Shown piece by piece: positions 2-63,649 of a DNA stretch of 64,000 bases. The notes below the pieces were generated by a model. That model saw only the letters and a list, made by a program, of their open reading frames with translations, ran no database searches and was not told where the DNA came from. The stretch's first letter is position 1, and each line of letters opens with the position of its first letter. Both the position numbers and the translations under genes were made by a program. This DNA is from Neisseriaceae bacterium (GTDB lineage: Bacteria; Pseudomonadota; Gammaproteobacteria; Burkholderiales; Chromobacteriaceae): NCBI GenBank assembly GCA_027489245.1, contig JAIYAC010000010.1, forward strand, positions 124,001 to 188,000, given 5' to 3'.

Positions 2-1714
2 TGGACCGGCAACCGCGTGACCTGCCGCGACTGGTTCCAGCTCAGCCTGAAAGAAGGCCTCACCGTGTTCCGCGACCAGGAATTCAGCGCCGACCTGCAC
101 AGCCGCCCGGTGAAACGCATCGAAGACGTGAAAAAACTGCGCCAGCTGCAGTTCCCGGAAGACGCCGGCCCGACCGCGCACGCCATCCGCCCCGACAGCT
201 ACATCGAGATGAACAATTTCTACACCATGACGGTGTACGAAAAGGGCTCCGAAGTGGTACGCATGTACCACACCCTGCTGGGTGAAGAAGGCTTCCAGAA
301 GGGCATGAAGCTGTACTTCCAGCGCCACGATGGCCAGGCCGTCACCTGCGACGACTTCCGCGCCGCCATGGCCGACGCCAACGGTGCCGACTTCACCCAG
401 TTTGCCCTGTGGTACAGCCAGGCCGGTACCCCGCAGCTGCACGTGCGCGGCGAATACGATGCCGTGGCGAAAAGCTACACCCTGCACGTGAAGCAAAGCT
501 GCCCCGATACCCCGGGTCAAAGTGGCAAACAGCCGTACCACATCCCGCTGGCCGTGGGCCTGCTGGGCCGCGACGGTCAGGACCTGCCGCTGCAGCTGGC
601 CGGCGAGCTTGCGCCTGGTGCCGGTACCCGCGTGCTGGATGTACGCGCCGCTGCGCAAAGCTTTACCTTTGTGAATGTGCCCGAGCTGCCGGTGCCGTCG
701 CTGCTGCGTGGTTTCTCTGCGCCGGTACGCCTGCAGTTCGACTGGCGTGACGACGAGCTGTCGTTCCTGATGGCCAACGACAGCGACGCCTTTGCCCGCT
801 GGGAAGCTGGCCAGGCTTACGCCGAGCGCCTGCTCAAAGCCCTGTTGGCCGACCAGGCCGCCGGCCGTGCGCTGCAGCTGCCGTCTGGCTTTGTGGACGC
901 GCTGCGTGCAGTGCTGAAGGACCACGCCGCCGACCCGGCCTTCAAGGCACTGATGCTGAGCCTGCCCTCCGAAGCCGACATCCTGGAAATGGTCGATGCG
1001 GCCAACCCTGCGCACATCCACACCGTGCGCGAGTTTGTGCTCAATGGCCTGGCGCAGGCGCTGCGCGGCGAATGGCACGAAGCCTACGACCTGAACCAGA
1101 CCCAGCGCTACCAGCCTGCTGACGGCGGCCGCCGCAGCCTGAAAAACCTGGCGCTGGCCATGCTGACCCGCCTGCACGATGCCTGGCCGCTGGAAGCTGC
1201 CGAGAAACAGTGCCTGGACGCAGATAACATGACCGACCAGATGGGCGCCATGCTGGCCCTGCGCGACCGCGATGTGGCTGAGCGTGAAAACTGCTACCTG
1301 TCGTTTGCCAGCCGCTGGCAGGGCGATGCACTGGTGATGGACAAGTTCTTCAGCCTGGTCGCCAGCAGCCAGCTGCCCGGTGTGCTGGAGCACGTGAAAG
1401 CCGCCATGAGCCACCCGGCGTTTACCCTGAAAAACCCGAACAAGGCGCGGGCGCTGCTGGGCAGCTTTGGCCGCAATATGCAGCATTTCCACGCGGCGGA
1501 CGGCTCCGGTTACGCTTTCCTGGCTGACCAGGTACTGGCACTGGACGCCATCAACCCGCAGGTGGCCAGCCGCATCGTGTCGCTGTTCAACCGTCGCCAG
1601 AAGCTGGAGCCACAACGTCAGGCGCTGATGACCCGCGAGCTGCAGCGCATTCTGGCCAAAGACGGCCTATCCAAGGATGTTTACGAAATCGTATCTAAGA
1701 ACCTGTCGGCATAA
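2..1714 (+). CDS. pepN: Aminopeptidase N, C-terminal part (partial)
   Basis: This is the C-terminal 570 or so residues of an M1-family zinc aminopeptidase; the open frame runs in from before the window, so the HExxH zinc site is missing here. The visible part starts within the catalytic domain (WTGNRVTCRDWFQLSLKEGL) and carries the conserved stretch around MNNFYTMTVYEKGSEVVRMYHTLLG that includes the transition-state Tyr region. It continues through the beta-sandwich and the helical C-terminal domain ending NLSA. The enzyme is cytoplasmic and removes N-terminal residues from peptides. Length and C-terminus fit full-length PepN of about 870 residues. The frame carries one copy of the repeated word GCGGCCAAC at 998-1006. 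Identification is confident; only the truncation by the window edge limits it. Confidence 0.95.
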   Translation, partial: WTGNRVTCRDWFQLSLKEGLTVFRDQEFSADLHSRPVKRIEDVKKLRQLQFPEDAGPTAHAIRPDSYIEMNNFYTMTVYEKGSEVVRMYHTLLGEEGFQKGMKLYFQRHDGQAVTCDDFRAAMADANGADFTQFALWYSQAGTPQLHVRGEYDAVAKSYTLHVKQSCPDTPGQSGKQPYHIPLAVGLLGRDGQDLPLQLAGELAPGAGTRVLDVRAAAQSFTFVNVPELPVPSLLRGFSAPVRLQFDWRDDELSFLMANDSDAFARWEAGQAYAERLLKALLADQAAGRALQLPSGFVDALRAVLKDHAADPAFKALMLSLPSEADILEMVDAANPAHIHTVREFVLNGLAQALRGEWHEAYDLNQTQRYQPADGGRRSLKNLALAMLTRLHDAWPLEAAEKQCLDADNMTDQMGAMLALRDRDVAERENCYLSFASRWQGDALVMDKFFSLVASSQLPGVLEHVKAAMSHPAFTLKNPNKARALLGSFGRNMQHFHAADGSGYAFLADQVLALDAINPQVASRIVSLFNRRQKLEPQRQALMTRELQRILAKDGLSKDVYEIVSKNLSA

Positions 1715-1717
1715 GCG

Positions 1718-1930
1718 GGTATACTGCTGTTTTGCCCCAAGCCGGTGCGCGCGCCGGTTTGGGGCTGCTGACACCGTGCACGTCTAAGTAGTTTCGGGCC
1801 CGGCACAGCCGTGCCGCACCCTGGACGTTGCTGAGTCTGCAGCCTTGCTGTTTACCCAGCAAACCCGGTTTGCGTTGCCAGCCGGGTTTGTTATCCCTCT
1901 CAAGCCGGTGCGTGCACCGGCTTATTTTGT
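1718..1930 (+). other. Intergenic region with four stacked hairpins
   Basis: Between pepN and the EamA transporter gene lie four inverted repeats: 1735-1745 with 1754-1764 (11 bp with one G-U pair), 1801-1806 with 1811-1816, 1861-1868 with 1882-1889, and 1902-1911 with 1914-1923 (10 bp, perfect, followed by TATTTT). The first and last share the core AAGCCGGTGC. A further ACGTC/GACGT pairing near 1780 and 1825 may enclose the second hairpin. The last one could be a terminator. The series could also be a structured leader or a small RNA; no known riboswitch class was recognised. Confidence 0.5.
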
Positions 1931-1942: not shown

Positions 1943-2824
1943 ATGCCTGTTTCTGCCTCCCCGCTTGCCAGTGTGTTGATGTTGTTGGGCTTGTGGTTTG
2001 CCTGGGGGACCAACTGGGTAGTCACCAAGCTGGGCCTGTCCTACGCCACCGCTTTTCAGCTGGGCCTGCTGCGCACCCTGTTTGCCATCGCCACTCTGGG
2101 CCTGGTGATGCGGCTCTCCGGTCGCGGTTTTCAGCCTACCCCCATGCGGCCAACCTTCTGGCTGGGCCTGACGCAAACCGCCGGTTTTGTGGTGTTTACC
2201 AACCTGGCGCTGGTGGCGGGCGGGGCGGGCAAGGTGTCGGTGCTGTGTTACACCATGCCGTTCTGGACGCTGCTGCTGGCGCGTATTTTCCTGCACGAAA
2301 AGCTGGCGCTCAGCCAGTGGCTGGGCGTGGCGCTGGCGTTTGCCGGCTTGCTGGCCATTCTGGAACCGTGGGATCTGGGCGGTACCTGGCAGTCTGACCT
2401 GCTGGCCATTACCGGTGGCCTGGTGTGGGCCAGCTCGGCCATTATCGCCAAGCGCCTGCGGGCGCAGCACCAGGTGGATACGCTGGCGCTGACGTTCTGG
2501 CAGATGGTATGGGGCACGGTGCCGCTGCTGGTTCTGCTGCCTTTTTTCCCCACCCGCGAGCTGGTGTGGGGTTGGCCGCTATTGGGTGTGTTGCTGTTTT
2601 CCGGCGTACTGGCTGGCGGCCTGGGCTGGCTGGTGTGGATGGTGTTGCTGTCGCGTCTGAGTGCCGGCATGGCCAGTATCAGCATTCTGGCCATCCCTGC
2701 CGTGGCGGTAGGCATGGCGTGGCTGCTGCTGGGCGAGCAGCCGTCGCTGGCGGAGGCCAGCGGCATGCTGATGATTGCGGCGGCCCTGATACTGATTTCG
2801 CTACGTGCGCTGCGCCGTGGCTAA
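1943..2824 (+). CDS. EamA/DMT-family transporter
   Basis: A 293-residue inner-membrane protein with about ten hydrophobic segments arranged as two EamA repeats. The first opens with LWFAWGTNWVVTKLGLSY, typical of the drug/metabolite transporter superfamily (YedA, RhtA, YdcZ relatives), and the second starts near residue 150 (LAITGGLVWASSAIIAKRL). Such proteins export amino acids, metabolites or drugs; the substrate cannot be read from the sequence. The gene stands alone. It follows a hairpin-rich intergenic region and is followed by a full 13-base repeat at 2823-2835 that overlaps its stop codon. Another full copy lies inside the gene at 2145-2157. Confidence 0.85.
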   Translation: MPVSASPLASVLMLLGLWFAWGTNWVVTKLGLSYATAFQLGLLRTLFAIATLGLVMRLSGRGFQPTPMRPTFWLGLTQTAGFVVFTNLALVAGGAGKVSVLCYTMPFWTLLLARIFLHEKLALSQWLGVALAFAGLLAILEPWDLGGTWQSDLLAITGGLVWASSAIIAKRLRAQHQVDTLALTFWQMVWGTVPLLVLLPFFPTRELVWGWPLLGVLLFSGVLAGGLGWLVWMVLLSRLSAGMASISILAIPAVAVGMAWLLLGEQPSLAEASGMLMIAAALILISLRALRRG

Positions 2825-2842
2825 GGTTGGCCGCAGCACGGC

Positions 2843-3328: not shown

Positions 3329-3460
3329 ATCGTGCATTTCCATCGATTTGGTGCGGCAAGTATGCGAAAAAAGTGCCGTACAGGCAAATGATGCGGCCAA
3401 CGCGCACGCGCCTGCTTCTACACTGGTGCTACTGGCACCTGCCGCACACACAAGAGAAAA

Positions 3461-4425: not shown

Positions 4426-6711
4426 TCAGGCGCTGGGGCGATCGGCTGGTGCACCGGCTTGCTGTAGCCAGTACAGCATCTGGTGGCGAGCACTGATGAA
4501 GTCCAGCTGTTGCAGCGCATCGCCCAGGCGCTGGTTGGCCGCAGCATCATGTGCGGCCAGCTGGCTGGCTATCTCGTTGTAGACGCGTTTGGCGCGTATA
4601 TTGCGCTCGCGCAGCAGCTGGTCCAGTGTTTGCAGCGCCGCCAGCGGCAGGGTGCCTGCGGCGCAGGGGTTGGCCGCAGGGGTCGTCTGGTCGCCGGGTA
4701 GCAGGGCCAGGCTGGCATTGGTTTCGTCCATGGCGCGTAGCAGCGCCGGCATCAGGATGCTGGCGCCCTCGTTATCACCGTTGGCCAGGGCAACCTCTAC
4801 CGAGGCGGCGGCCTTTTGCAGCTGGGCAATGTGCAGCGTAGCCGCGACCCCCTTCAGGGAATGCGCCAGACGCATGGCTTCTTGCGGCTGCTGTGCGTCT
4901 AGTGCTGCCTGGATCTGCTGCGCTGCCTGCGTGTAGTCCTGCCGCATGCGTAGTAACAGCTTGTACAGCAGACTGGTTTTGCCGCCTAGCTGTTGCTGCG
5001 CCGCCTGCAAGTCGAAGCCTGGCAGCTCGGGCAAGGGGGGCGGGCTTTCCATCATGGGCATGGTTTGGCCTTTTGCGGTGGCTTTGGGCTGTACCCAGCG
5101 CAGCAGGGTAGCCACCAGCGCTTCCGGGTTGATGGGCTTGCTCAAGTGGTCATTCATGCCGGCATCCAGCGAGCGCTGCCGTTCGCTTTCCATGGCGTGC
5201 GCAGTCATGGCAATAATGGGCAGCTGGCTGGCACTGTACTGCTGGCGGATATGCCGCGTGGCCAGCAGGCCGTCTATCTGCGGCATCTGGATGTCCATCA
5301 GAATGGCATCAAAGCGTTTGTTCGGGTGCAAGGCGGCAGCAATAGCCTGTTTGCCATCGTTAACCGTTTCTACCCGGGCGCCGAGCGAGCGTAGCAGGTG
5401 GCACTCGAATTCCTGCAATAGCTCGTTATCTTCTGCCAGTAATAGGTATAGCCCAGCCAGCGCCTGGTCGTGGGCCAGGCTGGGGCTTTGTTGCGGTTGG
5501 TCAGGGCTGGCGGGGGGCTCGCCTGGCTGCAGGCGGATGTTGAAACGGAATGTCGATCCCTCGCCCGGCACGCTGGTCACGTGGATGTCGCCGTGCATCA
5601 GCTGTACCAGCTGGCGGCAGATCACCAGGCCCAGGCCCGAGCCGCCAAAGCGCCGTGTGGTCGAGGTATCGGCCTGGCTGAATGACTGGAACAGTTTGTC
5701 TACCTGCTTTGGCGTCATGCCTATGCCGGTGTCGCTGACTGCGCAGTGCAGTGTGTAGTCCGGCCCCGGGCCTGGCTCGCCATGGATGGCAATGCGTACC
5801 TGGCCGTGCTCGGTGAATTTCAGGGCGTTATTGCTGAGGTTCAGCAGTACCTGGCCGAGCCGTAGCGGGTCGCCGCGCAGCCAGGGCGGAATCGTGTTGC
5901 TGACGTCCAGCGTGAGCATCAGGTTTTTCTGCGCCGCCTGCATCCGGATAATGTCTTGCAGGTTGCGTATAACGTCTGCCAGCGAAAAACTGACGTTTTC
6001 CAGTACCAGCTTGCCGGCTTCTATCTTGGAAAAGTCCAGGATATCGTTGATGACACCCAGTAGGGTTTTGGCAGCGGCATCCACCTTTTGCAGATTTTCA
6101 CGCTGTTCGGGCTGGAGCTTGCTGTCTAGCGTCAGGTGGGTATAGCCCAGTACGGCGGTAAGCGGTGTGCGGATTTCGTGGCTCATATTGGCCAGAAAAT
6201 CGCTTTTGGCGCGCGTGGCGGCTTCGGATGCTTCTTTGGCAATGTGCAGCGCGTCGGTTTTTTCGTTCAGCTGCAGCATCACATCACGAAAAGCATCCAG
6301 CGACTGCGCCATGCTGCCCAGCTCGTCGGGGTGCTGGTCCTCTAGCGCCTGTCCGGGCTCGCCCTGCTGCATTTGCTGCATGGCGCGCGCCAGCTGGCGC
6401 AGCCGGCTGCCCAGGATACGTTCCACATAGTAGTACGCCACCACCACGATCAGCAGCAGGCTCAGCAGCACCAGCAGCCACAGTATGGCGCTGCCTTGCG
6501 CCAGCAGTGGTTGCAGTGCGGCCAACTGGCGGGCGTCGGGCTGGCTGGCCAAGAGCTGTGCCACGTGCTGGTAGCCCCACATGGCCACGCCAGCCGTCAG
6601 CAGTACAGGCAGTAGCAGGGCCAGAATGGCGAGCTGAAGCTGCCTGGTAATGCTGTGTGCGGGCGGGCTGTGGTTGGGGCGTGGGGCGGGCAAGACAGCT
6701 CCTGTATGCAA
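4426..6711 (-). CDS. Hybrid sensor histidine kinase (TM-HAMP-HisKA-HATPase-REC-Hpt)
   Basis: A 761-residue inner-membrane kinase. Two membrane segments (about 26-47 and 74-96) flank a very short periplasmic loop of about 25 residues. A HAMP linker (about 97-150) and a HisKA domain with His178 in FLANMSHEIRTPL follow. The HATPase_c domain shows NNALKF near 294-299 and the G boxes DTGIGM and GGSGLGL. A receiver follows with Asp473 (LMDIQMP), then a C-terminal Hpt domain with His617 (AHSLKG). All four phosphotransfer sites are intact, so it can run a complete internal phosphorelay; the output partner is not visible nearby. The tiny periplasmic loop argues against a large extracytoplasmic ligand domain. 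Repeat-word copies lie at 4534, 4669 and 6518. Confidence 0.92.
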   Translation of the reverse strand: MHTGAVLPAPRPNHSPPAHSITRQLQLAILALLLPVLLTAGVAMWGYQHVAQLLASQPDARQLAALQPLLAQGSAILWLLVLLSLLLIVVVAYYYVERILGSRLRQLARAMQQMQQGEPGQALEDQHPDELGSMAQSLDAFRDVMLQLNEKTDALHIAKEASEAATRAKSDFLANMSHEIRTPLTAVLGYTHLTLDSKLQPEQRENLQKVDAAAKTLLGVINDILDFSKIEAGKLVLENVSFSLADVIRNLQDIIRMQAAQKNLMLTLDVSNTIPPWLRGDPLRLGQVLLNLSNNALKFTEHGQVRIAIHGEPGPGPDYTLHCAVSDTGIGMTPKQVDKLFQSFSQADTSTTRRFGGSGLGLVICRQLVQLMHGDIHVTSVPGEGSTFRFNIRLQPGEPPASPDQPQQSPSLAHDQALAGLYLLLAEDNELLQEFECHLLRSLGARVETVNDGKQAIAAALHPNKRFDAILMDIQMPQIDGLLATRHIRQQYSASQLPIIAMTAHAMESERQRSLDAGMNDHLSKPINPEALVATLLRWVQPKATAKGQTMPMMESPPPLPELPGFDLQAAQQQLGGKTSLLYKLLLRMRQDYTQAAQQIQAALDAQQPQEAMRLAHSLKGVAATLHIAQLQKAAASVEVALANGDNEGASILMPALLRAMDETNASLALLPGDQTTPAANPCAAGTLPLAALQTLDQLLRERNIRAKRVYNEIASQLAAHDAAANQRLGDALQQLDFISARHQMLYWLQQAGAPADRPSA

Positions 6712-6795: not shown

Positions 6796-8136
6796 TTACC
6801 ATGGCACTGTGCTGATCGCCGCCAGCCTGCGCACGATATCAGTAAATAGCGGTCGCTGTGCCCGCTCGGCTGACAGGCACTCAGCCTGTAGCGTAGCCAG
6901 TAGCGCCAGGGTTGGCCGCGTGGCCATGTCGGCTTGGCAATGCGCCAGCAGCTCCTGCAGCAGGTAGCCAAAAGCCCGCACGTCGATCTGCTGTAGTGCG
7001 CGGGCGTTCGCCTGGCCGGGGTGGTAGAACGAGGCGGCGCCAAAATCGCTTAGCAGCGTTTCGCCGTCGGCCCGGTACAGTACGTTATGGCCGTACAGGT
7101 CGCCATGCAGCATCCCCCGCTCGTGCAGGTGCTGCATCACCCCCGCCACCGTGCTGGCGATACGCAACACCACCGGTAAGGCAAAGCGGCGCTCGGGCGG
7201 GTAGACGTCGCGCGTGCAGCTGTTCAGGCTAGGGGGCTGGGCCAGGTTGTCAAAACCGTCTGGCATCTGTGCCATCACCAGGCCCTGGCGGGCTTGCGGG
7301 TGGCCGCTGAGCTGCCCCAGTAGCGCGATCAGCCCCGTGTGCTGCCCGGCGTGCAGCGCCGCGGCCATTTCGCATTGCGGCAGGCCGTCGCTGGTGATGC
7401 CGCCTTTGAACAGCTTGAGCGCCACGCGGCCGGCTGTGGCCATGCCGTGCTCGTCCAGCAGGCTGGCCTGGTAAATGTGGCCGGAGGCCCCTTCGCCCAG
7501 CAGCGGGCCCACTTGCACGCTCGCCCACGGGATAGCGGGCAGGCTGGCACCGTGTGCGGCTTGCTGCTCCTGCGCCTGGCAAAACGGGTTACCCGCGTAA
7601 GCCAGCCATGCCAGCTGGGGCAGGGTGGTCAGCCAGGCGGGCAAGGCCGTGAGCTGGTTGGCCGCAATGCGCAGCAGCGCCAGCTGCCGGCACTGCGCCA
7701 GGCTGGTGGGCAGGCTACGCAGACGGTTACCCGCCAGCATCAGCTTTTCCAGCCGGGTGCACTGGCCCAGCGCGTCGGGCAGCGTTTCGATAAGGTTATC
7801 GGTCAGCACCAGCCAGCGTAGCTGTGGTGGCAGCGCCGCCGCGGGCACGTGGCGGATGCGGCAGGCTTTGAAGCCGATCATGGTCAGCGATGGGCAGCGC
7901 CCCAGCACGGCGGGCAGCGTGGTAAACGGGTTATCCGAGCAAAAGATCACCCGCAGCTTGTGCAGCCGTGGCAAATCGTCTGGCAGGGTGCTGAGCTGGT
8001 TACCGGATAAATCCAGAATCTCCAGGCTATCGGCCAGGCTGTAGATCTCGGGCGGAAAGGTGTCCAGCCCGGCGTGCAGGCTCAGGCGGGTAATGCCGGC
8101 CAGCGCGCCGCTGCGTAGCTGTTCGAGTGTATGCAT
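6796..8136 (-). CDS. Leucine-rich-repeat protein kinase
   Basis: A 446-residue fusion. Residues about 15-185 hold at least six leucine-rich repeats of the bacterial type (LEILDLSGNQLSTLPDDL, LEKLMLAGNRLRSLPTSL). Residues about 205-446 are a Hanks-type protein kinase: a glycine loop GEGASGHIYQ at 214-223, ATP-binding Lys241 in VALKLF, a catalytic loop HGDLYGHNVL with Asp346 and Asn351, and DFG at 364-366. The kinase residues appear intact, although the usual HRD is HGD. No signal peptide or membrane segment is seen, so it should be cytoplasmic. The target is unknown; LRRs usually mediate protein binding. Similar LRR-kinase proteins occur in pseudomonads and betaproteobacteria. It stands downstream of guaA on the same strand, separated by terminator-like hairpins. 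Confidence 0.85.
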   Translation of the reverse strand: MHTLEQLRSGALAGITRLSLHAGLDTFPPEIYSLADSLEILDLSGNQLSTLPDDLPRLHKLRVIFCSDNPFTTLPAVLGRCPSLTMIGFKACRIRHVPAAALPPQLRWLVLTDNLIETLPDALGQCTRLEKLMLAGNRLRSLPTSLAQCRQLALLRIAANQLTALPAWLTTLPQLAWLAYAGNPFCQAQEQQAAHGASLPAIPWASVQVGPLLGEGASGHIYQASLLDEHGMATAGRVALKLFKGGITSDGLPQCEMAAALHAGQHTGLIALLGQLSGHPQARQGLVMAQMPDGFDNLAQPPSLNSCTRDVYPPERRFALPVVLRIASTVAGVMQHLHERGMLHGDLYGHNVLYRADGETLLSDFGAASFYHPGQANARALQQIDVRAFGYLLQELLAHCQADMATRPTLALLATLQAECLSAERAQRPLFTDIVRRLAAISTVPW

Positions 8137-8202: not shown

Positions 8203-8227
8203 GCGGCCAACGTTAAGGTTGGCCGCA
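8203..8227. repeat. Inverted pair of the GTTGGCCGC word
   Basis: GCGGCCAAC (8203-8211) and GTTGGCCGC (8218-8226) form a perfect 9-bp stem with a six-base loop. The right half is a full 13-mer (8215-8227). It lies just after the guaA stop on the minus strand. Confidence 0.9.
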
Positions 8228-50031: not shown

Positions 50032-50045
50032 GTTGCGGCCAACCT

Positions 50046-50093: not shown

Positions 50094-51257
50094 TCAGGGC
50101 TGGCGCTGGCGGTCTTGCGGATAGGCGTACATCACGTGTTGTTGGCGCACTTCGCCAATCACCGGCACGTCCAGCTCGATGGCCTCGTGGTCTGTACTGG
50201 AAAAGGGCTTGCGATAGGTTGTAATCAGGCCGGCCACCGGCTGCTTCAGGTTTTCCAGCGCCCGGTGAATGGCCGGGCCATCGGTACTGCCGGCCTGCCG
50301 GATGGCGGCGGCCAGCAGCAGCATGCTGTCGTAGCCCTGTGCGGCAGAAGGCGGCGACGGTATGCGCAGGCCACCGTTGGCGTGCAGGTAGCGGTTGATG
50401 AACGCCAGACGCAGCGGGGTGTTGCCGTCCTGGATAAAGGTTTGCACCATGCGTGCGCCCATGGCATTCGGGCCCGCATTATCGATGAAGTTGGACATCG
50501 ATAGCGTCCAGCTGCCAATGATGGGAACACGCCATTCCATCTGCGCCAGGGTGTTGGCAATCTGCGCCAGCTCGGGCCCGATGGTATAGGTCAGGATGCA
50601 CTGTGCACCTGCTGCGCGGGCTTTTTCCAGGTAGACGCTCATGTCCAGCTCGCCATTGTTGAACTGGCTGACACTGACCGGATGCATGCCTTTTTGCGCC
50701 AGCGACTTCAGCAAGTCCTGCTGCCCCAGGCGGCCGTAGTTGCTGTTATCGCTCAGCACCGCCACACGGGTAAAACCACGGCGCAGCGCCTCGCGCACGA
50801 TCAGCGGTGCCTGCAGGCTGTCGGACGCCGCCACGCGGAATACGTAGTTGGCCGCATGGCGGGGCGGGGTGAACTGCTGGGTGATGATATGGGCGGTGGC
50901 CACTGCGGTGATGGCCGGGATGCGCGCCTGCTGGTAGCGTATTTGCGAGGCCAGCGCCACGCCGCTATTGGCAAAGCCCACACTGGCCACCACGCGTTGT
51001 TTGTCGATCAGCTCGCTGGCTATGCGCTGGCCCAGCTCCGGGCGGCCACGGTCGTCGCGCTCTATCAGCAGTATTGGCCGCCCCAGCAGGCCGCCGTGCT
51101 GGTTGATGTCCTCTGCTGCCAGGCGGATGCCATTGCGCATCGAGATGCCCATGGGGGACGAGCCGCCGCTGAACGGGCCGGACAGGCCAATGCGGATAGG
51201 CTCGGCTGCGTGGGCAGTGGCCAGCGTCAACAGGCAAAGGCTTAACAGACGGCGCAC
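50094..51257 (-). CDS. Periplasmic branched-chain-amino-acid-type binding protein
   Basis: A 387-residue exported protein. The signal peptide MRRLLSLCLLTLATAHA is followed by EPIRIGLSGPFSGGSSPMGISMRNGIRLAAEDINQ, the LivJ/LivK type I periplasmic fold, with VASVGFANSGVALA and GYDSMLLLAAAIRQAG. No liv permease genes are adjacent. It is divergent from a PAS-histidine kinase and FixJ-type regulator, so it may serve as the extracytoplasmic ligand sensor for that kinase; this is inference from position. Confidence 0.85.
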   Translation of the reverse strand: MRRLLSLCLLTLATAHAAEPIRIGLSGPFSGGSSPMGISMRNGIRLAAEDINQHGGLLGRPILLIERDDRGRPELGQRIASELIDKQRVVASVGFANSGVALASQIRYQQARIPAITAVATAHIITQQFTPPRHAANYVFRVAASDSLQAPLIVREALRRGFTRVAVLSDNSNYGRLGQQDLLKSLAQKGMHPVSVSQFNNGELDMSVYLEKARAAGAQCILTYTIGPELAQIANTLAQMEWRVPIIGSWTLSMSNFIDNAGPNAMGARMVQTFIQDGNTPLRLAFINRYLHANGGLRIPSPPSAAQGYDSMLLLAAAIRQAGSTDGPAIHRALENLKQPVAGLITTYRKPFSSTDHEAIELDVPVIGEVRQQHVMYAYPQDRQRQP

Positions 51258-51337
51258 GGGCTGCTCCTGATGGCATTATCGCTAGGGGGCGCTTATTATC
51301 GCATTCCATCGACCCCTGCGGCCAACCCGTCTTGCCC

Positions 51338-53977: not shown

Positions 53978-54603
53978 CCGTAGCCAAGAACATACGCATC
54001 CATATCGTGGACGACGACGAGGCTTTTCGCGATTCCTTGCTGTGGCTACTGGAAAGCCACGATTACAGCATTCAGTGCCACGATAGCGCCGAAGGCTTTC
54101 TGCACAGCTATCGCCCGGCGCAGGGCACGGGCTGCCTGATTCTGGATATCCGCATGCCGGGCATGAGCGGGCTGGAGCTCTACGACGAGCTGCAGGCGCG
54201 CGGCAATACCTGGCCGGTGATCTTCATTACCGGCCACGGCGATGTGCCGATGGCGGTGCAGGCAGTCAAGCGTGGGGCACACGACTTCCTGGAAAAACCG
54301 TTCAATCAGGAAGCCTTGCTGGCGGCGGTAGACAGTGCGTTGGCCAGTGCGGCCAACCAGGCGCAAAGCGCGCAGGAAGCTGGCCAGTGCGAGGCACGCC
54401 TGGCCACGCTGACCACGCGCGAGCGCGAGGTGCTGGAGCGGGTGATCGAGGGCAAGATGAACAAGATCATTGCCGACGACCTGGGCATCAGCATCAAAAC
54501 GGTTGAGGCACACCGCGGCAAGATGATGGACAAAATGGGGGTCCGTTCGATTGCCGACCTGGTACAGACCGTGGTGGCCTATCGGCAGCAAAAAAACCGC
54601 TAG
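53974..54603 (+). CDS. FixJ/NarL-type response regulator
   Basis: A 209-residue regulator with a receiver (about 7-125; phosphoacceptor Asp58 in LILDIRMPG, Lys in FLEKPF) and a C-terminal LuxR-type helix-turn-helix (LTTREREVLERVIEG, KIIADDLGISIKTVEAHRG). It is translationally coupled to the upstream kinase (ATGA overlap), forming a two-component pair of the FixL-FixJ kind. Targets are not visible; the divergent binding-protein gene may be one. A repeat-word copy overlaps the end at 54605. Confidence 0.93.
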   Translation: MTVAKNIRIHIVDDDEAFRDSLLWLLESHDYSIQCHDSAEGFLHSYRPAQGTGCLILDIRMPGMSGLELYDELQARGNTWPVIFITGHGDVPMAVQAVKRGAHDFLEKPFNQEALLAAVDSALASAANQAQSAQEAGQCEARLATLTTREREVLERVIEGKMNKIIADDLGISIKTVEAHRGKMMDKMGVRSIADLVQTVVAYRQQKNR

Positions 54604-54663
54604 CGTTGGCCGCAGGGGGCCATGGCCACCCGCAGGCTGTGCGCTCTGGGGCTAACCCGGCAC

Positions 54664-54726: not shown

Positions 54727-55317
54727 TCAGGGGGCATCCAGCCAGGCCAGCTGGCCATGGCAGGCTTCGCTCAGGCTGTGGCGTAGTGTGTCGGCTGCCT
54801 GTGCGGGTAAGCTGAATTGCAGGGTAACGTTGGCCGCATGCGCTACCGCTAGCAGCGTGGCGTCGTGCTTTTGCAGCAAGCGGCGTGCCGTGCCTTCCAG
54901 CGCGTAGGGCAGGCTGCAGCCTAGTGTCAGCATGGCAATCTGTTCTTCGCGCTCGCAGTGTGACAGTGCCTGGGCCACCGCGTCGGTATAGGCCCGTACC
55001 AGCCCGCCAGCCCCCAGTTTTACCCCGCCGTAGTAGCGCACCACGGTGGCCAGCACGCCTTCCAGCTGCTGGTGTCGCAGCACATCCAGCATGGGGCGGC
55101 CTGCGGTGCCGGAGGGCTCGCCGTCATCGTTGGCCGCAGAGTGCCCGCCCGCCAGTAGCGCCCAGCACACGTGTGCCGCGCCCGGGTGGGCTGCTTTTAG
55201 CTCGGCCACTCGCTGCAGGGCGGCGGCGCGGCTGGGTACGGCCTCGACGCAGGCAATAAAGCGGCTTTTCTTGATGTCCAGCTCGGCGTGGCCAGGCTGT
55301 GGCAGGGTAAACGGCAT
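54727..55317 (-). CDS. yigZ: YigZ/IMPACT family protein
   Basis: A 196-residue UPF0029 protein. The N-terminal domain has KKSRFIACVEAVPS, AAHVCWALLAGGHSAANDDGEPSGTAGRPML and VVRYYGGVKLGAGGLVRAYTDA, the family core. The C-terminal ferredoxin-like domain starts near residue 130. E. coli YigZ and eukaryotic IMPACT share the fold; the bacterial role is unclear. No partner gene is adjacent. Confidence 0.93.
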   Translation of the reverse strand: MPFTLPQPGHAELDIKKSRFIACVEAVPSRAAALQRVAELKAAHPGAAHVCWALLAGGHSAANDDGEPSGTAGRPMLDVLRHQQLEGVLATVVRYYGGVKLGAGGLVRAYTDAVAQALSHCEREEQIAMLTLGCSLPYALEGTARRLLQKHDATLLAVAHAANVTLQFSLPAQAADTLRHSLSEACHGQLAWLDAP

Positions 55318-55369: not shown

Positions 55370-57046
55370 TTAGCGGAGTACGTATTCCACTTCCACCCGG
55401 CTACCGTTTTCCAGATAGCGCACGCTGCGGCATAGCCGGTTGACCAGGGTGATACCACGGCCATGCAGGGCGGTGTCGTCCGGCTCGCCCTGCAGGAAAC
55501 GCGTGGCATCAAACCCCTGGCCACTGTCGTGTATGCAGAGTTTCAGGATAGGGAAGTCTTCGCCGGTAACATGCGACATGGCCACTTGTATCCAGCCATG
55601 CTGCAGACCGAACAGCTTGCCCGCGCGCTGCATCAGGTAGCTGGTAAAGCCGGTGCTGGAGTGCTTTTCGCTGGAATCCAGCGCCAGGACGCCGTGGTCC
55701 AGCGCGTTGTTGAACAGCTCGGTGACGATGAGCAGCAGGTCGCTGAGCTGGGCTTCGGATAGCCCGATCTGGTTGAGCCAGCCCAGCAGGGTGGCCATGC
55801 CCAGCTCCTCGCGCAGCTCTTTGGGGCCAAAGTCCAGGCGCAGCTCCCAGTTGCTTAGCTGGGTAAACACGGTGCCCTGCGCAGCTGGGCTGGCCGGGCC
55901 GATGCTGGCCGTGCAGGGGGCCAGTACCAGCGAGATGTCATCAGCATTTTCATGGCCGCCCAGGTGGGCAATCACCCGTTCGCGCAGCGGGGCAATGGCT
56001 GGTTCGGTAGGTGGGCTGGCCAGCATACTGCACAGGGTGTCCAGTGACAGGGTGTCATCCTGGGTGCCTTTGGCTTCGGTCAGTCCGTCAGAGCAGATCA
56101 TCAGCCGGCCGGGCTCGGACCAGCGGTAGACATCCACGCTGGCGTCAAAGTCCAGGTTGCGCAGAATGCCCAGCGGCGGGTTGCTGGACTGGAACTGTTT
56201 TTCGATCTGGCCTTGCTCGTTGACGAAGGCGGCAAACGGGATGCCGCCATTCCACACGGTAACGGTTTTTTCCTGCGGGTTGATGGCGGCCAACGTGGCG
56301 GCGACAAAGCGGCCAACCGGCAGGTGCTGCTTCAGTTTTTTATTGATCTCGCGCGCGATGGCATTAATGCCGAAGCCTTTTTGCGTCATGGCATAAAACA
56401 CCGTGGCGGCGGGCAGGCAGGCAATCGCGGCCGACAGCCCGTGGCCGGTACTGTCAGCCAGCATGATATGCAGGGTATCGGTAGGTGAGCGTGCTGCGGT
56501 AATGATGTCGCCACTGAACTGTACGGCAGGCTGGATCCATTGTTCTATGCCGGTCTGGCTACGGTCGCCGTACAGGTTGTGCAGCACGTGCTCGGCCAGC
56601 TGCTGTTCCATTTCATTACTGAGATAGTAGGCTTCCAGGCGCTGGGCATCCTGGCTGATACGCTGCTGCATGTCGGCGATACGCGACATCACGCGGATCT
56701 TGGCGGTGAGCAGTTTGATGTCTACCGGCTTGGTCAGGTAGTCGTCGCCACCGGCATCCAGGCCGGCGAGCATGTCTTCCTGTTCGATTTTGCCGGTCAG
56801 GAAAATAATGGGAATCCAGCGCTTGTTAAAGCGCTCGCGAATGCGACGGGTGGCTTCCAGGCCGTCCATCTGCGGCATGATGACGTCCATCAGGATCAGG
56901 TCTGGCAGCATGGTTTCGCAGCAGGCCAGTGCCTGGGCGCCGTCTTCGGCGGTAACAACCTGGTGCCCCAAGGCCTGAATCAGGCGGCTTACTACCAAGC
57001 GGTTTACATTACTGTCATCTACTACCAGCACGTTCAGGGTTTGCAT
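55370..57046 (-). CDS. Response regulator-PP2C phosphatase-HATPase fusion (HsbR/RsbU-like)
   Basis: A 558-residue partner-switching protein in three parts. The first is a receiver domain (1-120, Asp54 in LILMDVIMPQ). The second is a SpoIIE-type PP2C serine phosphatase (about 165-395), with SGDIITAARS, LADSTGHGLSAAIAC and ENADDISLVLA supplying metal-binding Asp/Gly. The third is a C-terminal RsbW-like GHKL ATPase (about 420-558), with LLIVTELFNNALDHGVL and DSGQGF. It matches the layout of Pseudomonas HsbR, which controls the STAS protein HsbA and so FlgM and biofilm signalling. It starts 12 bases after the STAS gene on the same strand. Confidence 0.9.
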   Translation of the reverse strand: MQTLNVLVVDDSNVNRLVVSRLIQALGHQVVTAEDGAQALACCETMLPDLILMDVIMPQMDGLEATRRIRERFNKRWIPIIFLTGKIEQEDMLAGLDAGGDDYLTKPVDIKLLTAKIRVMSRIADMQQRISQDAQRLEAYYLSNEMEQQLAEHVLHNLYGDRSQTGIEQWIQPAVQFSGDIITAARSPTDTLHIMLADSTGHGLSAAIACLPAATVFYAMTQKGFGINAIAREINKKLKQHLPVGRFVAATLAAINPQEKTVTVWNGGIPFAAFVNEQGQIEKQFQSSNPPLGILRNLDFDASVDVYRWSEPGRLMICSDGLTEAKGTQDDTLSLDTLCSMLASPPTEPAIAPLRERVIAHLGGHENADDISLVLAPCTASIGPASPAAQGTVFTQLSNWELRLDFGPKELREELGMATLLGWLNQIGLSEAQLSDLLLIVTELFNNALDHGVLALDSSEKHSSTGFTSYLMQRAGKLFGLQHGWIQVAMSHVTGEDFPILKLCIHDSGQGFDATRFLQGEPDDTALHGRGITLVNRLCRSVRYLENGSRVEVEYVLR

Positions 57047-57604: not shown

Positions 57605-58783
57605 ATGTCTCACAAAAAGCAGGCCGTTTTGCTGGGCCTTGCCCTATGCGCTGTATTGGCATGGCACATATCGGCAGCCTTGCTGGCACAGCAAGGATGG
57701 TTGGCCGCATGCCTGCATAGCGGGTTTACCTGCGTGCTGCTGCTATTGGTCAGCTGGTCTATGCGGGCGGGGCAGGCGCAGCAGCGTGAAGAACGGGCAG
57801 AGGTGCAGGGGGCGGCGTGGCGAGAGGTCGAACCCTTGTGGCAGCAGCTGCAGCAGGCATACGCCGAGCAGTGTCAGCAGCTGGAGGCGCAGCTGGACGA
57901 GGCTAACCACTTGTTACAAGATGCGATCGGCAGCCTGCTGGAGAGCTTTAGCAGCATTACCCGGCACGCCAAGGCACAGCAGCATATCGCCATCAGCATG
58001 ATCGGCGCCGAGGAAGGGGGGGATAACCAGCACACCGCCAGCTTCGAGCGTTTTGCCCATGACACCAATGCCACGCTGGAAATCTTTGTGGAAAATACCC
58101 TGCGTACCAGCCAGGTGAGTATCGTGCAGGTCAACCATATGACCGAGATCGACGAGAAAATCCGTAGTGTGCATGCCTTTCTGGCGGATATCGACGGCAT
58201 TTCCAAGCAGACCAATATGCTGGCACTGAACGCTGCGATTGAGGCGGCGCGTGCGGGGGAGGCAGGGCGCGGCTTTGCCGTGGTGGCCGACGAAGTCCGA
58301 GCGCTGTCGCTGCGTACGCATGACTTCAACGAGCAGATCAGCCAGACCATTTTGTCGGTGCAGAAAATGGTAGAAGAAGCGCACGCCAGTATTGCGGCGC
58401 TGGCCTCGCATGACATGAGCTATGTCCTGGAAGCCAAGATGCGCGTGCAGCACACCATGGGCCAGATCAACGAGCTGAGCCAGGGTATGGAAGAGGCGGT
58501 GGCCCAGCTGAACGGCATCGCCGGGCAGGTAGAACACAGTACCAATGTGGCGATTACCTCATTGCAGTTCCAGGACCGCCTGAGCCAGATGCTGGGCCGC
58601 GCCGGTCAGTGCGTGTCTACGCTGCAGGCTTTGCAGCAGCTGGCGCCCCAGCTGCTGGCCGCCTCGGGTCGTGGCGAGCAGTTGGCCGCATTGCGCGAGC
58701 AATACCGGCTGCAATTGCAGACGCTACGCCAGCCACCGCAGGCCGGCGCGCCCGCTAGCCATAATGATATCGAATTGTTTTAG
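57605..58783 (+). CDS. MCP-signalling-domain protein without HAMP
   Basis: A 392-residue protein with two membrane segments near the N-terminus (about 7-27 and 40-55) separated by only a dozen residues, then a coiled coil and an MCP signalling tip ([22 protein letters not shown], about 198-219). It lacks a HAMP domain and any clear ligand domain. The short C-terminal end, ASHNDIELF, has no CheR-binding pentapeptide. It may be a non-chemotactic receptor-like signalling protein. GGGGAGA stands before the ATG. An Hpt gene follows nine bases after its stop. Confidence 0.85.
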
Positions 58784-59143: not shown

Positions 59144-62100
59144 GCCGCCGCGATGTGCCGCAGCAGCATGTCGCGCAGGTCGGCAATTGCAAACGGTTTG
59201 CCGATATGGTCGTTCATGCCGGCGGCCAGGCAGTTAGCCCGGTCGTCATGCATGGCATTGGCCGTCATGGCAATAATCGGTAGCTGCGTTTCCCCCAGGG
59301 TTTGCCGGATTTCCCGTGTGGCGGTGAGCCCATCCATCACGGGCATTTGCAGGTCCATCAGTACGGCGTCGTAGCGCGGGTTCATGTTGGCTACGGCACT
59401 CACGGCCAGCTCGCCGTTTTCTGCAATATCAATCTGTGCCCCTTCTTTGCTGAGCAAGCCCTTGGCCACCAGCCGGTTGGTCACATTGTCTTCCACCAGC
59501 AGTAGCCTCAGCCCGCTTAGCGGGGCAGCCTGTGGCGTGGCAGTCTCTGCGGCAGGGGCTGTTTCCTGGTGCTTGGCCAGCTGGGTGAACTGCAGCTGGT
59601 CAACGGTTTCTTTCAGCATGCTCTGGGTCAGCGGCTTGACCAGAAAGCCGGCCAGCAGGCTGCGCTCGCGGTCGGACTTTGCGGCCAACATATCGCGCCC
59701 ATGGGCGGTGACCATCACCATTTGTACCTGGCTATCGTAGCGGCGCAGTTCGCGGCAGCTGGCCCAGCCGTCCAGGCCCGGCATTTGCCAGTCGATCAAG
59801 ACCAGCTGGTACGGTAACGGTTTGCCCCCCAGGCTGGCCAGCATGCTGACCAGCTGTTCGCCGCTTTCCAGGCAGCTGGCATGCCAGCCTAGCTGGGCTA
59901 CCATGGCGCCGGTGGCTTCGCGGGCTACGGGGTTATCGTCCACGATCAGTACCGACAGGGCTTGGCCTGCCGGGATGACGGGCTGTTCGTTCAGGGCGGG
60001 GGGCACGGCCAGCGTAAGTTCAAAGCTGAAGCAGCTGCCTTTAGCGGGTTGGCTTTCTACGCGGATGTCGCCACCCATCAGCTGTACCATGCGCTGGCTG
60101 ATGGCCAGCCCCAGCCCGGTGCCGCCAAAACGGCGTGTGGTCGAGGTTTCTGCCTGGCTAAAACTGTGGAATAGCTTGCCCAGCTGCTCGCTGCTGATGC
60201 CGATACCGGTGTCTTGTACGCTGAACAGCAGGGTGACATTTTCCCGCGTGCGGGCTTGCTGGGTAATGCGGACGAGGACTTCGCCGGCTTCGGTAAATTT
60301 GATGGCATTGCCGGCCAGGTTCAGCAGTACCTGTTGCAGCCGCATGGCATCGCCGGTCAGCCAGGGCGGGATTTTGGCATCCACATTGAAAATGAGCTCG
60401 AGCGGTTTGTTCAGGCTGGTGACCGACAGGATCACCGACAGGTTGTGCATGAGCTGGTCCAGGCGGAAGGGTTGCAGGTCCAGCGTCATTTTGCCGGCTT
60501 CTACCTTGGAAAAATCCAGAATGTCATTCAGCAGGCCCAGTAGCGAGCGTGCAGCGGCTTCGGTCTTGTCTACGTAGTCTTGCTGCTCTGCGGCCAACGG
60601 GGTGTGCTGCAAGAGCTGCAGCAGACCCAGTATGGCGTTCATCGGGGTGCGGATTTCGTGGCTCATATTGGCCAGAAAACGGCTTTTTGCCTGGCTGGCC
60701 TGCTCGGCCTGGTGCTTGGCTTCTTGCAGTGACGCCTCGTGTACCTTGCTGGCGGTGATGTCGCGGCGGATGGACACGTAGCGTTCTATGCCGCCCTGGG
60801 TGTTCAGGAAGGGGGCGATGATGCTGTCTACCCAGTACAGGCTGCCGTCTTTGCGGCGGTTGCATACATCGCCACGCCAAGGTTGGCCGCGTGCCAGCGT
60901 CTGCCACATGTGCTGCCAGAATGCCGGCTCGTGTACACCGGCATTCAGTAGCTTGTGGTCCTGGTTCAGCAACTCGGGCAAGGTATAGCCGCTGATATCG
61001 GTAAAGGCCTGGTTGGCGCTGATGATATGGCCGCGGGGGTCGGCAATGGACACAATGAAATGCTGCTGGATGATGTCGTGCACGGTTTGGGCTTCTAGCA
61101 GTGCACTATGCAGATCCCCCTGGATGGCTTCTTGCAGGGTGATATCACTTTCAATGGCCATGAAGCCTTCCAGGCGCTGGTGTTCATCCCACAAGGGCTG
61201 GATTTCCAGGGCGACCCAATAGTCGCGCCCCGATTTGGCCCGGTTCAGCAGCTTGCCTTGATAGGGTTGCTGTTGTGTCAGTGCCTGGCTGATGCGGGCG
61301 ATCACTGCCGGGTCACTATCTGTCGACTGCAGCAGCTTGCCGGGCTGTTGCCCCAGTACTTCCTCGAGTGTGTAGCCGGTTAGCCGGGTAAAGCCTTCGT
61401 TGACCCAGGTAATGCGCCGGTCGGTGTCGGTAATCACAATGGCGTTAGTGGTATGCCGGGCTACCTTGGCCAGCAGGGCCAGGTCTTTGGTCATGCTGGC
61501 AGCCAGCTGCTCGGCCCGCTGTTTGTTATGCAGTAGCAGCCAGCAGGAAAAGCCCGCCAGCACACTCATGATAAAGCCCATGATGGCGACGATGGCCTGT
61601 GTGCTGCGATTAATGCTGGCATCGAATAAGGCGGTACTGCTGCTGCGCAGGGTCAGGGTGCGGCCGCTGGCTTCCAGGCGCTGCATACGCACGAAGCTGC
61701 GTGTTGTTGGCTGGGCGGTAACCGTGCCGGCTGCGAGCGGGTAGCCGTGGCGATCGTCGTCGTAGACAATACTGCCGGGGCTGGGCAGGGGGCTATCGAA
61801 TAGCTCGAAGTCCAGGCTTTGCTCGGTTGCCAGGCTTACGCCGTGCATCAGCTCGCGTACCACCACCGGGGTGTACACCAGGCCCAACAGGGCTTGCTGG
61901 CGTTGTTGCAGGTTTGTTAGTGGCAGACCTGGGCGAAATACCGGTACCAGGATCAGATAGCCCGGCGTACGCAGGGTGTCCTGGCGCAGCGTGATGCTGC
62001 CGGTCATGGTGGCTTTGCCGCGCGCCAGGGCATGAATGATGGCGCTACGGCTAACGGCATCGGCGCCGACATCGTCGCCCCAGGTTTCCTGGTTGCCTGC

Positions 62101-62766: not shown

Positions 62767-62854
62767 GACAGCAGCCCCGCTAGCAGTATGGATATATCGA
62801 TATACTAGCGTATGCCAAGTCGGTCTTGCACGGTGCCGGCAGGATTTTGCGGGT

Positions 62855-63649
62855 TTAGCTGGCTAGCTGGCACTTTACCTGGTGCCAGTCTTGCCAGGCT
62901 TTGGCTTTTTCGCCGGGGCTGCGCAGCAGGTAGGCCGGGTGGAAGGTGACCAATAAAGGGCGGCCATGCGCATGGTGCAGCTGTTTGCGCAGTGTGCTGA
63001 TCGGGGCCTGGCTATTGAGCAGGGTGTGGGCGGCAAAGCGGCCTAGTGCCACAATCAGGTCGGGCTTTACGGTATCGATTTGCCACTGCAGATAGCTGGC
63101 GCAGCTGGCAATCTCGGCGGGTGCCGGGTTACGGTTGCCCGGTGGCCGGCATTTCACCACATTGCAGATATAGACATCTTGCTCGCTGTTGATACCGGCT
63201 GCGGCCAACATGTTTTCCAGCAGCTGGCCGGCTTTGCCGACAAAAGGCAGCCCTTGGCGGTCTTCTTGCTCGCCGGGGGCCTCACCAATAATCAACAGGC
63301 GTGCTGTGGGGTTGCCGCGGCCAACCACGACATTGTGCCGCGTCTTGGCCAGCTCGCAGCGCTGGCAGGCCGCCACCTGGGCATGCAGACTGTCCCAGTC
63401 CTGGATGGGCAGCGTATGCGGCTGCTTGGTCTGCGGGGCCACTTCGTTTACTTCAACCGGGGCCGGCGCGGCAACCGGGGCTGTGCTGGCCACTGCGGCC
63501 ACGCGCGGCGGCGTGGCTACCGTGATGGCAGCTGTTTCTGCTACGGCAGCAGCCTGGGGTTCGGGGCTGTTTGGTACACCGGGCTCTCCACGGGGCCGCC
63601 ATAGCGGGCTAAGGCCCATTTCCTGCAGGACAAAGGCACTGCGGTTCAT
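62855..63649 (-). CDS. Family 4 uracil-DNA glycosylase (Fe-S)
   Basis: A 264-residue DNA-repair enzyme. A low-complexity Ala/Pro/Val-rich N-terminal stretch (about 25-75) precedes the family 4 UDG domain. It has motif A GEAPGEQEDRQGLPFVG and motif B TFHPAYLLRSP. Four cysteines (95, 98, 167, 183) are placed to bind a 4Fe-4S cluster. It excises uracil from DNA. The order with rimI upstream, overlapping by four bases, is common in betaproteobacteria. The N-terminal extension resembles that of DNA polymerase-related UDGs and may be disordered. Confidence 0.92.
   Translation of the reverse strand: MNRSAFVLQEMGLSPLWRPRGEPGVPNSPEPQAAAVAETAAITVATPPRVAAVASTAPVAAPAPVEVNEVAPQTKQPHTLPIQDWDSLHAQVAACQRCELAKTRHNVVVGRGNPTARLLIIGEAPGEQEDRQGLPFVGKAGQLLENMLAAAGINSEQDVYICNVVKCRPPGNRNPAPAEIASCASYLQWQIDTVKPDLIVALGRFAAHTLLNSQAPISTLRKQLHHAHGRPLLVTFHPAYLLRSPGEKAKAWQDWHQVKCQLAS

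What the first reader, a model, noticed from the sequence alone, without database searches (positions are those of the whole stretch)
998..63325. A dispersed 9-13 base word (AAGGTTGGCCGCA) at about one per kilobase: candidate DNA uptake sequence of a new dialect
I found 65 exact copies of GTTGGCCGC (either strand) in 64 kb. For a 9-mer in roughly 60% G+C DNA about one is expected by chance (my hand estimate). Some 48 extend to GTTGGCCGCA and 12 to the 13-mer AAGGTTGGCCGCA. Copies are evenly spread, balanced on both strands (about 34 against 31) and lie inside genes of all functions, in different reading frames (LAA, AAN, VGR and others). In the LAA frame they use the codon TTG, although CTG dominates for Leu around them. 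Between genes they cluster in inverted pairs that make terminator stems. All of this is how Neisseria and Pasteurellaceae uptake sequences behave. The Neisseriaceae dialects I know share the core GCCGTCTGAA or close variants; this word is different. Strand balance argues against Chi- or KOPS-like polarity signals.
Basis: partly seen in the sequence, partly recalled or inferred. Interest (0 to 1): 0.93.

Follow-up and report, generated by a model that had tools for sequence, protein, structure and literature searches.

The report
New DNA uptake word in Vogesella
The aquatic bacterium Vogesella carries about 2,300 copies of one short DNA word scattered over its genome, and several sister genera carry a slightly different spelling of it; the word is likely a tag that would let a predicted pilus receptor pick out the cell's own kind of DNA for uptake.

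Summary
Confirmed. GTTGGCCGC occurs 66 times in the window (1.75 expected in shuffles) and is its top 9-mer. The window is Vogesella (Chromobacteriaceae). The own genome holds 2,301 GTTGGCCGCA and 451 AAGGTTGGCCGCA (reversed control 0). All 13 genomes of the genus held carry 1,871-2,895 copies; the 48 other family genomes 8-58. Ten of those 48, in six genera (among them Gulbenkiania, Crenobacter, Pseudogulbenkiania), are instead rich in a sister word, GGTTGGCCGA; Chromobacterium and nine of ten Aquitalea-type genomes are rich in neither. At two of eight alignable sites Vogesella and Gulbenkiania carry their own spelling in the same place. The four gaps above 7 kb in 864 kb hold a BREX island, a Lamassu/TniQ defence stretch and a polysaccharide locus. 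A ComP-family minor pilin lies near aroBK-pilQPONM; the predicted fold of a 91% identical relative matches ComP structures first in the PDB. But it lacks the second disulfide (DD region) of Neisseria ComP, and the word lacks the CTG core of Neisseriaceae dialects. Best reading: a new lineage of DNA uptake sequences read by a DD-less ComP. Uptake and binding are untested; ComEC was not found in this 88%-complete assembly, but two sister Vogesella have it.

The parts
998..1006 (-). GTTGGCCGC, first copy
2145..2157 (-). 13-mer AAGGTTGGCCGCA
2571..2579 (+). GTTGGCCGC
2823..2835 (+). 13-mer AAGGTTGGCCGCA
3393..3401 (-). GTTGGCCGC
4534..4542 (+). GTTGGCCGC
4669..4677 (+). GTTGGCCGC
6518..6526 (-). 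GTTGGCCGC
6911..6919 (+). GTTGGCCGC
7657..7665 (+). GTTGGCCGC
8203..8227 (.). inverted pair (8203-8211 -, 13-mer 8215-8227 +), intergenic, 3' of guaA
11574..11586 (+). 13-mer AAGGTTGGCCGCA
12039..12047 (+). GTTGGCCGC
13684..13692 (+). GTTGGCCGC
15146..15158 (-). 13-mer AAGGTTGGCCGCA
16057..16103 (.). inverted pair (13-mer 16057-16069 +, 16095-16103 -) across the called start of the kdsA ORF, which may be called too long
18878..18886 (+). GTTGGCCGC
20367..20379 (+). 13-mer AAGGTTGGCCGCA
22537..22545 (+). GTTGGCCGC in mutL
22693..22710 (.). abutting inverted pair (22693-22701 -, 22702-22710 +) inside mutL
24742..24770 (.). inverted pair of two 13-mers (24742-24754 +, 24758-24770 -), intergenic, 3' of secF
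25550..25558 (+). GTTGGCCGC in secF; same word at the aligned site in Gulbenkiania
28043..28078 (.). inverted pair (13-mer 28043-28055 +, 28070-28078 -), intergenic, 3' of tgt; the 28070 copy is spelt GGTTGGCCGAAG at the aligned site in Gulbenkiania
29755..29763 (-). GTTGGCCGC
30450..30458 (+). GTTGGCCGC
33157..33165 (+). GTTGGCCGC in pheS
34553..34561 (+). GTTGGCCGC in pheT
35567..35575 (-). GTTGGCCGC in pheT; spelt GGTTGGCCGAAA at the aligned site in Gulbenkiania
35954..35962 (+). GTTGGCCGC in pheT
36223..36231 (+). GTTGGCCGC in pheT
37351..37359 (-). GTTGGCCGC
37850..37862 (-). 13-mer AAGGTTGGCCGCA
38595..38603 (-). GTTGGCCGC
38936..38944 (+). GTTGGCCGC
40150..40158 (+). GTTGGCCGC
42129..42137 (-). 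GTTGGCCGC
42844..42856 (-). 13-mer AAGGTTGGCCGCA
44359..44367 (+). GTTGGCCGC
45130..45138 (+). GTTGGCCGC
46654..46662 (-). GTTGGCCGC
47917..47925 (-). GTTGGCCGC
48004..48012 (-). GTTGGCCGC
50035..50043 (-). GTTGGCCGC
50847..50855 (+). GTTGGCCGC
51318..51326 (-). GTTGGCCGC
52931..52939 (-). GTTGGCCGC
53041..53049 (+). GTTGGCCGC
53612..53620 (-). GTTGGCCGC
54349..54357 (-). GTTGGCCGC
54605..54613 (+). GTTGGCCGC
54829..54837 (+). GTTGGCCGC
55129..55137 (+). GTTGGCCGC
56286..56317 (-). direct pair of GTTGGCCGC (56286-56294, 56309-56317)
57700..57708 (+). GTTGGCCGC
58681..58689 (+). GTTGGCCGC
59681..59689 (-). GTTGGCCGC
60590..60598 (-). GTTGGCCGC
60882..60890 (+). GTTGGCCGC
63201..63209 (-). GTTGGCCGC
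63317..63325 (-). GTTGGCCGC, last of the 66 copies

Best explanation
The word AAGGTTGGCCGCA is most likely the DNA uptake sequence of Vogesella, predicted to be bound by a ComP-family minor pilin of the type IV pilus so that the cell would preferentially take up DNA of its own kind during natural transformation. Shown here: its number, sharpness, spread and near-equal strands; its presence in all 13 genomes of the genus held; a sister spelling in ten genomes of six other genera; its thinning in low-GC DNA and defence islands; and a ComP-family pilin in all 13 genomes of the genus. Inferred: that this ComP binds the word; that pilus retraction then pulls word-bearing DNA through PilQ to ComEA and ComEC; and that repeated uptake and recombination keep the word common in core genes. 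Inferred second use: inverted pairs at gene ends act as hairpins, probably in transcription termination. Inferred history, from one gene tree: GGTTGGCCGAA is the older spelling, Vogesella changed to ...GCA, and Chromobacterium and most Aquitalea-type genomes lost the system.
For: Top word and high genome-wide counts. All-or-none spelling: for AGGTTGGCCGCA (206 copies) the 27 single changes in positions 3-11 give 0-4 copies each. Genus-specific: 13 of 13 genomes 1,871-2,895 copies, 48 of 48 other family genomes 8-58. Sister word enriched in 10 of 48 with its own 3' letters; in 386 genomes of the order outside the family GGTTGGCCGM never exceeds 110 copies. Same-site spelling switch at 2 of 8 alignable sites. 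Copies kept above background in Vogesella relatives: 16 of 20 in V. aquatica against 48% of other 9-mers, 12 of 19 in V. urethralis against 32%, 7 of 13 in V. indigofera against 31%. 2.5-kb bins under 50% GC hold 1 copy in 6 bins, bins at 62-66% GC 1.08 per kb; the four gaps over 7 kb hold a BREX island (integrase, BrxC, BrxHI, PglZ), a stretch with PD-T7-1/5-like, LmuA, LmuB and TniQ proteins, and a 47% GC polysaccharide locus. ComP-family pilin over the PF16732 cut-off, one small ORF away from aroB-aroK-pilQPONM; a profile of 27 family sequences finds the three ComP structures first (2nba 1.8e-20, 2m3k, 5hz7); the AlphaFold model of P0001, 91% identical to the own protein, pLDDT 92, has the same three as first PDB matches. 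ComEA in the own genome; ComEC in 2 of 2 other Vogesella tested. A K/R in the loop before WPxLP in 22 of 23 word-bearing genomes and 0 of 19 word-free ones examined.
Against: No uptake or binding experiment exists. No ComEC over the cut-off in the own assembly, which is 88% complete. ComP homologues also exist in genera without the word, so ComP presence alone does not predict it. The pilin has one cysteine pair, not two; of the three basic positions named for Neisseria (R78, K94, K108) only K94 is basic (Arg) in the own protein, by my count on the alignment. V. oryzae shows hardly any excess conservation (4 of 12 against 30%), and the counts are small and not independent. The link with GC is confounded: the word itself is GC-rich. 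A mild strand preference, 391:317, is unexplained. The K/R correlation is not corrected for relatedness, covers 19 of 38 word-free genomes, and G010 (word present, T there) breaks it. Net charge of the pilin differs little between the groups (p = 0.06).
Confidence: 0.9

Rival explanations
1. A recombination or segregation signal (Chi-, KOPS- or matS-like) spread over the chromosome and read by a DNA-tracking enzyme inside the cell.
For: Dispersed short word in core genes; slight excess on the G-rich strand, 391 against 317 of the 708 copies in stretches with clear skew.
Against: 379+/415- overall; 52 of 61 close pairs are inverted and 40 of these lie between genes; the sister genus spells it differently at two same sites and Chromobacterium and nine of ten Aquitalea-type genomes are rich in no version, which fits a receptor-driven dialect better than a core recombination enzyme (inference).
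Confidence: 0.04
2. A highly iterated word kept by a methylation or mismatch-repair bias, like the HIP1 octamer of cyanobacteria (recalled): the GGCC centre is a methylation target and neighbouring bases follow.
For: The word contains GGCC; HIP1 is recalled to be similarly dense in coding DNA.
Against: The word is not palindromic and needs nine fixed letters plus graded flanks; GGCC in other contexts is no better conserved than background (100 of 218, 46%, against 48% in V. aquatica); inverted pairs between genes; a ComP-family pilin is present.
Confidence: 0.03
3. A dispersed repeat or terminator element (REP/BIME-like) copied by a transposase-like enzyme.
For: 40 intergenic inverted pairs with strong hairpins (median fold z -4.9 against mononucleotide shuffles) that avoid divergent gene starts: 1 of 39 against 100 of 454 intergenic regions.
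Against: 565 of 794 copies lie inside genes, in many frames; little conserved sequence beyond about 13 bases; the largest word-free gaps, not the copies, coincide with islands.
Confidence: 0.02

Closest known systems
DNA uptake sequence (DUS) dialects of Neisseriaceae (Frye et al. 2013, PMC3630211; section 6 and passages seen)
   Same: 10-13 base word in about 2,000 copies per genome, dialects among relatives, inverted pairs between genes, a ComP-family minor pilin in the genome.
   Different: The eight Neisseriaceae dialects share CTG at +6 to +8 and A at +10; this word has no CTG on either strand. The paper found no obvious DUS in its Laribacter, Lutiella, Pseudogulbenkiania and Chromobacterium strains; here a related word is abundant in Vogesella, Gulbenkiania, Crenobacter and, less densely, a genome with the PheT of Pseudogulbenkiania subflava. 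The strains of that paper were not tested here.
ComP, the DUS receptor of Neisseria (PMC4906244 and PMC12061091, passages seen)
   Same: Type IV minor pilin; shared NAxFMExxY...[FY]K...WPxLP signature; profile and fold searches both rank ComP structures first.
   Different: Two cysteines instead of four: the pair C76-C125 that pins the DD region is absent, and the loop between the remaining pair is 8 residues; of R78/K94/K108 only the K94 position is basic (Arg) in the own protein.
Uptake signal sequences (USS) of Pasteurellaceae (PMC12616744, passages seen)
   Same: Would work alike: genome-wide short tag for self-DNA, two dialects, a minor pilin predicted as receptor.
   Different: Unrelated word (AAGTGCGGT / ACAAGCGGT) and a different pilin (PpdA/ComN).

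Membership tests
Neisseriaceae-type DUS | Most over-represented 9-13-mer of the genome, about 1 per kb | tested here: met
   Ranks first at k = 8-14 in 864 kb, about a quarter of the genome; 2,301 GTTGGCCGCA in 3.51 Mb
Neisseriaceae-type DUS | Both orientations about equally, in core genes of many functions | tested here: met
   379+/415-; window genes pepN, guaA, eno, kdsA, pyrG, mutL, secDF, tgt, pheST and others
Neisseriaceae-type DUS | Inverted pairs at gene ends (terminator-like) | tested here: met
   52 of 61 close pairs inverted, 40 intergenic, 1 of 39 between divergent genes; T-run only in 11 of 40
Neisseriaceae-type DUS | CTG core at +6 to +8 shared by all eight dialects | tested here: not met
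   AAGGTTGGCCGCA and its complement contain no CTG; PMC3630211 section 6
Neisseriaceae-type DUS | Scarce in recently acquired DNA | tested here: inconclusive
   All four gaps >7 kb are islands or low-GC loci and bins under 50% GC hold 1 copy in 15 kb, but islands were sought from the gaps, not independently, and the word is GC-rich
DNA uptake sequence (any lineage) | Word raises DNA uptake or transformation | not testable with these tools
   needs a competence assay
ComP family pilin | Pfam ComP_DUS (PF16732) above the curated cut-off | tested here: met
   32.4 against 27.3 bits; PF16732 also rings in PilE-like pilins, so it is not specific
ComP family pilin | Sequence profile and fold closest to solved ComP | tested here: met
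   Searches (profile of 27 family sequences; model of a 91% identical relative): three ComP structures are the first three in both
ComP family pilin | Four cysteines, two disulfides, DD region | tested here: not met
   Two cysteines past residue 28 in 40 of 42 family ComPs, three in 2; the C76 position is not Cys
ComP family pilin | Basic residues R78, K94, K108 | tested here: inconclusive
   1 of 3 basic in the own protein by my count on the alignment; the word read is different, so other contacts may serve
Natural competence machinery | PilMNOPQ, ComEA, ComEC | tested here: inconclusive
   PilMNOPQ and ComEA in the own genome; ComEC not over the cut-off in the 88% complete assembly but in 9 of 9 other genomes tested, two of them Vogesella

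The most novel reading that the evidence does not exclude
Chromobacteriaceae hold a second, independent lineage of DNA uptake sequences with its own core (GTTGGCCG) and at least three spellings, read by ComP pilins that have no DD region; word recognition by ComP therefore does not need the DD region, and the family has switched its word in place at the same genomic sites, changed it in Vogesella and lost it in Chromobacterium.
Probability: 0.65. Interest if true: 0.87.

Novelty: new variant of a known kind. Interest (0 to 1): 0.82.

Why it matters
The papers seen here name two families with genome-wide uptake tags of this kind, Neisseriaceae and Pasteurellaceae. A third, with several dialects among aquatic bacteria, would make open questions directly testable: which ComP residues read the word, whether the DD region is needed, how a genome with 2,000 copies can change its word (two same-site switches are visible), and what is lost with the word in Chromobacterium. 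It also invites a second look at genomes reported in 2013 without an obvious DUS: G048, whose PheT is identical to that of Pseudogulbenkiania subflava, holds 565 GGTTGGCCGA against 20 controls, although the one named P. subflava stretch of 22 kb showed only 3 GTTGGCCGA.

Tried and rejected
PF16732 as a marker for the receptor: rejected, it rings in all 61 family genomes because PilE-like minor pilins match. The first hit in the own genome (L011, PilE-like pilin next to PilX- and PilW-like ORFs) was therefore dropped in favour of the pilin near aroB. A weak word in Aquitalea-type genomes (AACTGGCCG, 13 copies against 2.4 in 60 kb) was not followed. A first PheT tree had six rows read on the wrong strand (G049, G055, G003, G031, G017, G042) and was replaced. 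G045 (genus g9) was left out of both trees because its PheT lies in pieces with stops. Of the 80 loci, 38 were counted; the other 42 were not. In G036 (genus g6) the sister word was only second among 10-mers, behind a G-run. Net charge as a marker of word-bearing ComP: weak. Literature: nine searches listed no paper, judged by title and abstract start, on an uptake word in Vogesella or other Chromobacteriaceae. The 17 papers with GTTGGCCGC and 'uptake' look unrelated by title and were not opened; one search listed 20 of 177. The one TCGGCCAAC hit in PMC3868556 is a cloning primer. The library holds open-licence PMC papers only. Papers seen: PMC3630211 (section 6 and passages); passages of PMC13020248, PMC12616744, PMC4906244, PMC12061091, PMC3868556, PMC10715097; all others listings only.
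Full report
What was checked. GTTGGCCGC is present 66 times in the window, 1.75 expected, 12 times as AAGGTTGGCCGCA, and is the first-ranked 9-mer. The own genome (G000, 3.51 Mb, 26 contigs, 88% complete) holds 451 13-mers, 213+/238-, and 0 reversed controls, and 2,301 GTTGGCCGCA against 6 controls. In an 864-kb sample the word ranks first at every length from 8 to 14. It is all-or-none: positions 3-11 of AGGTTGGCCGCA tolerate almost no change (0-4 copies for each of 27 single changes against 206), while the first, second and last letters are graded.

Whose genome. PheT of the window is 98% identical to Vogesella aquatica and 99% to an unnamed MAG. The nine Vogesella-type loci fetched (seven named Vogesella, the MAG L079 and isolate L13) all have GTTGGCCGC among their top two 9-mers with 12-21 copies per 15-22 kb; four Aquitalea and five Chromobacterium loci have 0-1. 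N. gonorrhoeae served as positive control: 29 GCCGTCTGAA in 22 kb.

Spread over the family. GTTGGCCGCA: 13 of 13 genomes of the genus 1,871-2,895; 48 of 48 genomes of nine other genera 8-58. Sampling those other genera showed sister words. GGTTGGCCGA is enriched in 10 of 61 family genomes (157-1,104 copies; g5 2 of 2, g6 2 of 2, g7 1 of 1, g9 1 of 1, g10 3 of 3, and G010, 1 of 10 in g2) and at background (6-41) in the other 51. Spellings: g5 GTTGGCCGAG, g7, g10 and G010 GGTTGGCCGAAG, g6 and g9 GTTGGCCGAA. By identical PheT, G038 is Gulbenkiania mobilis, G048 Pseudogulbenkiania subflava and G006 Aquitalea palustris; by identical ComP, G036 is Crenobacter sp. SG2303 and G035 C. luteus. In 386 genomes of the same order outside the family GGTTGGCCGM never exceeds 110 copies.

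Dialect history. In a PheT tree (39 rows; G045 left out) the Vogesella spelling is one clade (100/100), the sister spelling lies on three branches, and word-free Chromobacterium and Aquitalea group with word-bearing G010. This fits an older GGTTGGCCGAA, a change in Vogesella and losses; it is one gene and the deep fork is open. Of eight own copies alignable over 16 bases to Gulbenkiania, two carry the sister spelling at the same place and one the same word; the other five differ.

Behaviour in the genome. 565 of 794 copies are in genes (0.78 per kb) and 229 between or at gene edges (1.61 per kb), by a simple codon-based gene caller of my own. Spacing is near-exponential apart from an excess of close pairs (59 against 29 at <=40 bp), mostly inverted and between genes. 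Own copies are kept more often than other 9-mers in eight of nine Vogesella-type relatives, hardly so in V. oryzae; 1 of 12 is found in Gulbenkiania, 0 of 10 in Aquitalea palustris and 0 of 12 in Chromobacterium subtsugae. Density falls with GC: 0.07 per kb in 2.5-kb bins under 50% GC, 0.47-0.60 at 50-58%, 0.81-1.24 above, which the word's own GC content confounds. The four gaps above 7 kb are two neighbours forming an island after glnA (integrase, Toprim primase, BrxC, BrxHI, PglZ), a 50% GC stretch with PD-T7-1/5-like, LmuA, LmuB and TniQ proteins, and a 47% GC locus with an O-antigen ligase, a glycosyltransferase and a nucleotide-sugar dehydrogenase.

Receptor. Each of the 13 genomes of the genus has a pilin with the ComP signature, outside the PilE-like minor-pilin cluster. 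In the own genome it follows a GspH-like pilin and is separated by one unmatched ORF from aroB-aroK-pilQPONM; aroB and the upstream pilin recur in the five other Vogesella checked. A profile of 27 family sequences finds the three ComP structures first, and so does the AlphaFold model of P0001 (91% identical to the own protein). It has one cysteine pair instead of two. Homologues exist in word-free Aquitalea and Chromobacterium; in g4 the best hits of the three genomes looked at (of four) were other minor pilins. The residue after the conserved aromatic before WPxLP is K or R in 22 of 23 word-bearing genomes and in none of the 19 (of 38) word-free ones examined; relatedness was not corrected for.

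Verdict. By the word it is not a member of the Neisseriaceae dialect set (CTG core not met), and its ComP lacks the DD region; it would work like a DUS system but forms its own lineage. No paper describing it was listed. Uptake and binding remain untested.

Noticed in passing
L232:13171 to L233:15189 (G000:C6, about 113-135 kb): Integrase-primase island after glnA with BrxC, BrxHI and PglZ (BREX) and a Schlafen/AlbA protein, nearly free of the uptake word.
   Followed up: partly
L237:367-10369 (G000:C20, about 64-74 kb): Low-GC (50%) word-free defence stretch: PD-T7-1/PD-T7-5-like protein, LmuA and LmuB (Lamassu) and a TniQ-domain protein fused to a helix-turn-helix.
   Followed up: partly
G010 (genus g2), L175, L253-L256: Sole word-bearing genome in a genus whose nine other genomes lack it; its ComP has T instead of K/R and a third cysteine. 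Possible relic of the lost system.
   Followed up: partly
window 6796-8136 (-): 446-aa protein with leucine-rich repeats resembling XopAC-type effectors (far below their cut-off) followed by a protein-kinase-like part.
   Followed up: no
L059-L061 (Aquitalea-type genomes): Weak excess of AACTGGCCG (13 against 2.4 in 60 kb), perhaps a decayed or different word.
   Followed up: no
G045:C3:504583-506927 (L299-L301): pheT read in pieces with stop codons, in an 80% complete genome; sequencing error or pseudogene.
   Followed up: no
G000 sample, 864 kb: Slight preference of the word for the G-rich strand (391 against 317), unexplained.
   Followed up: no
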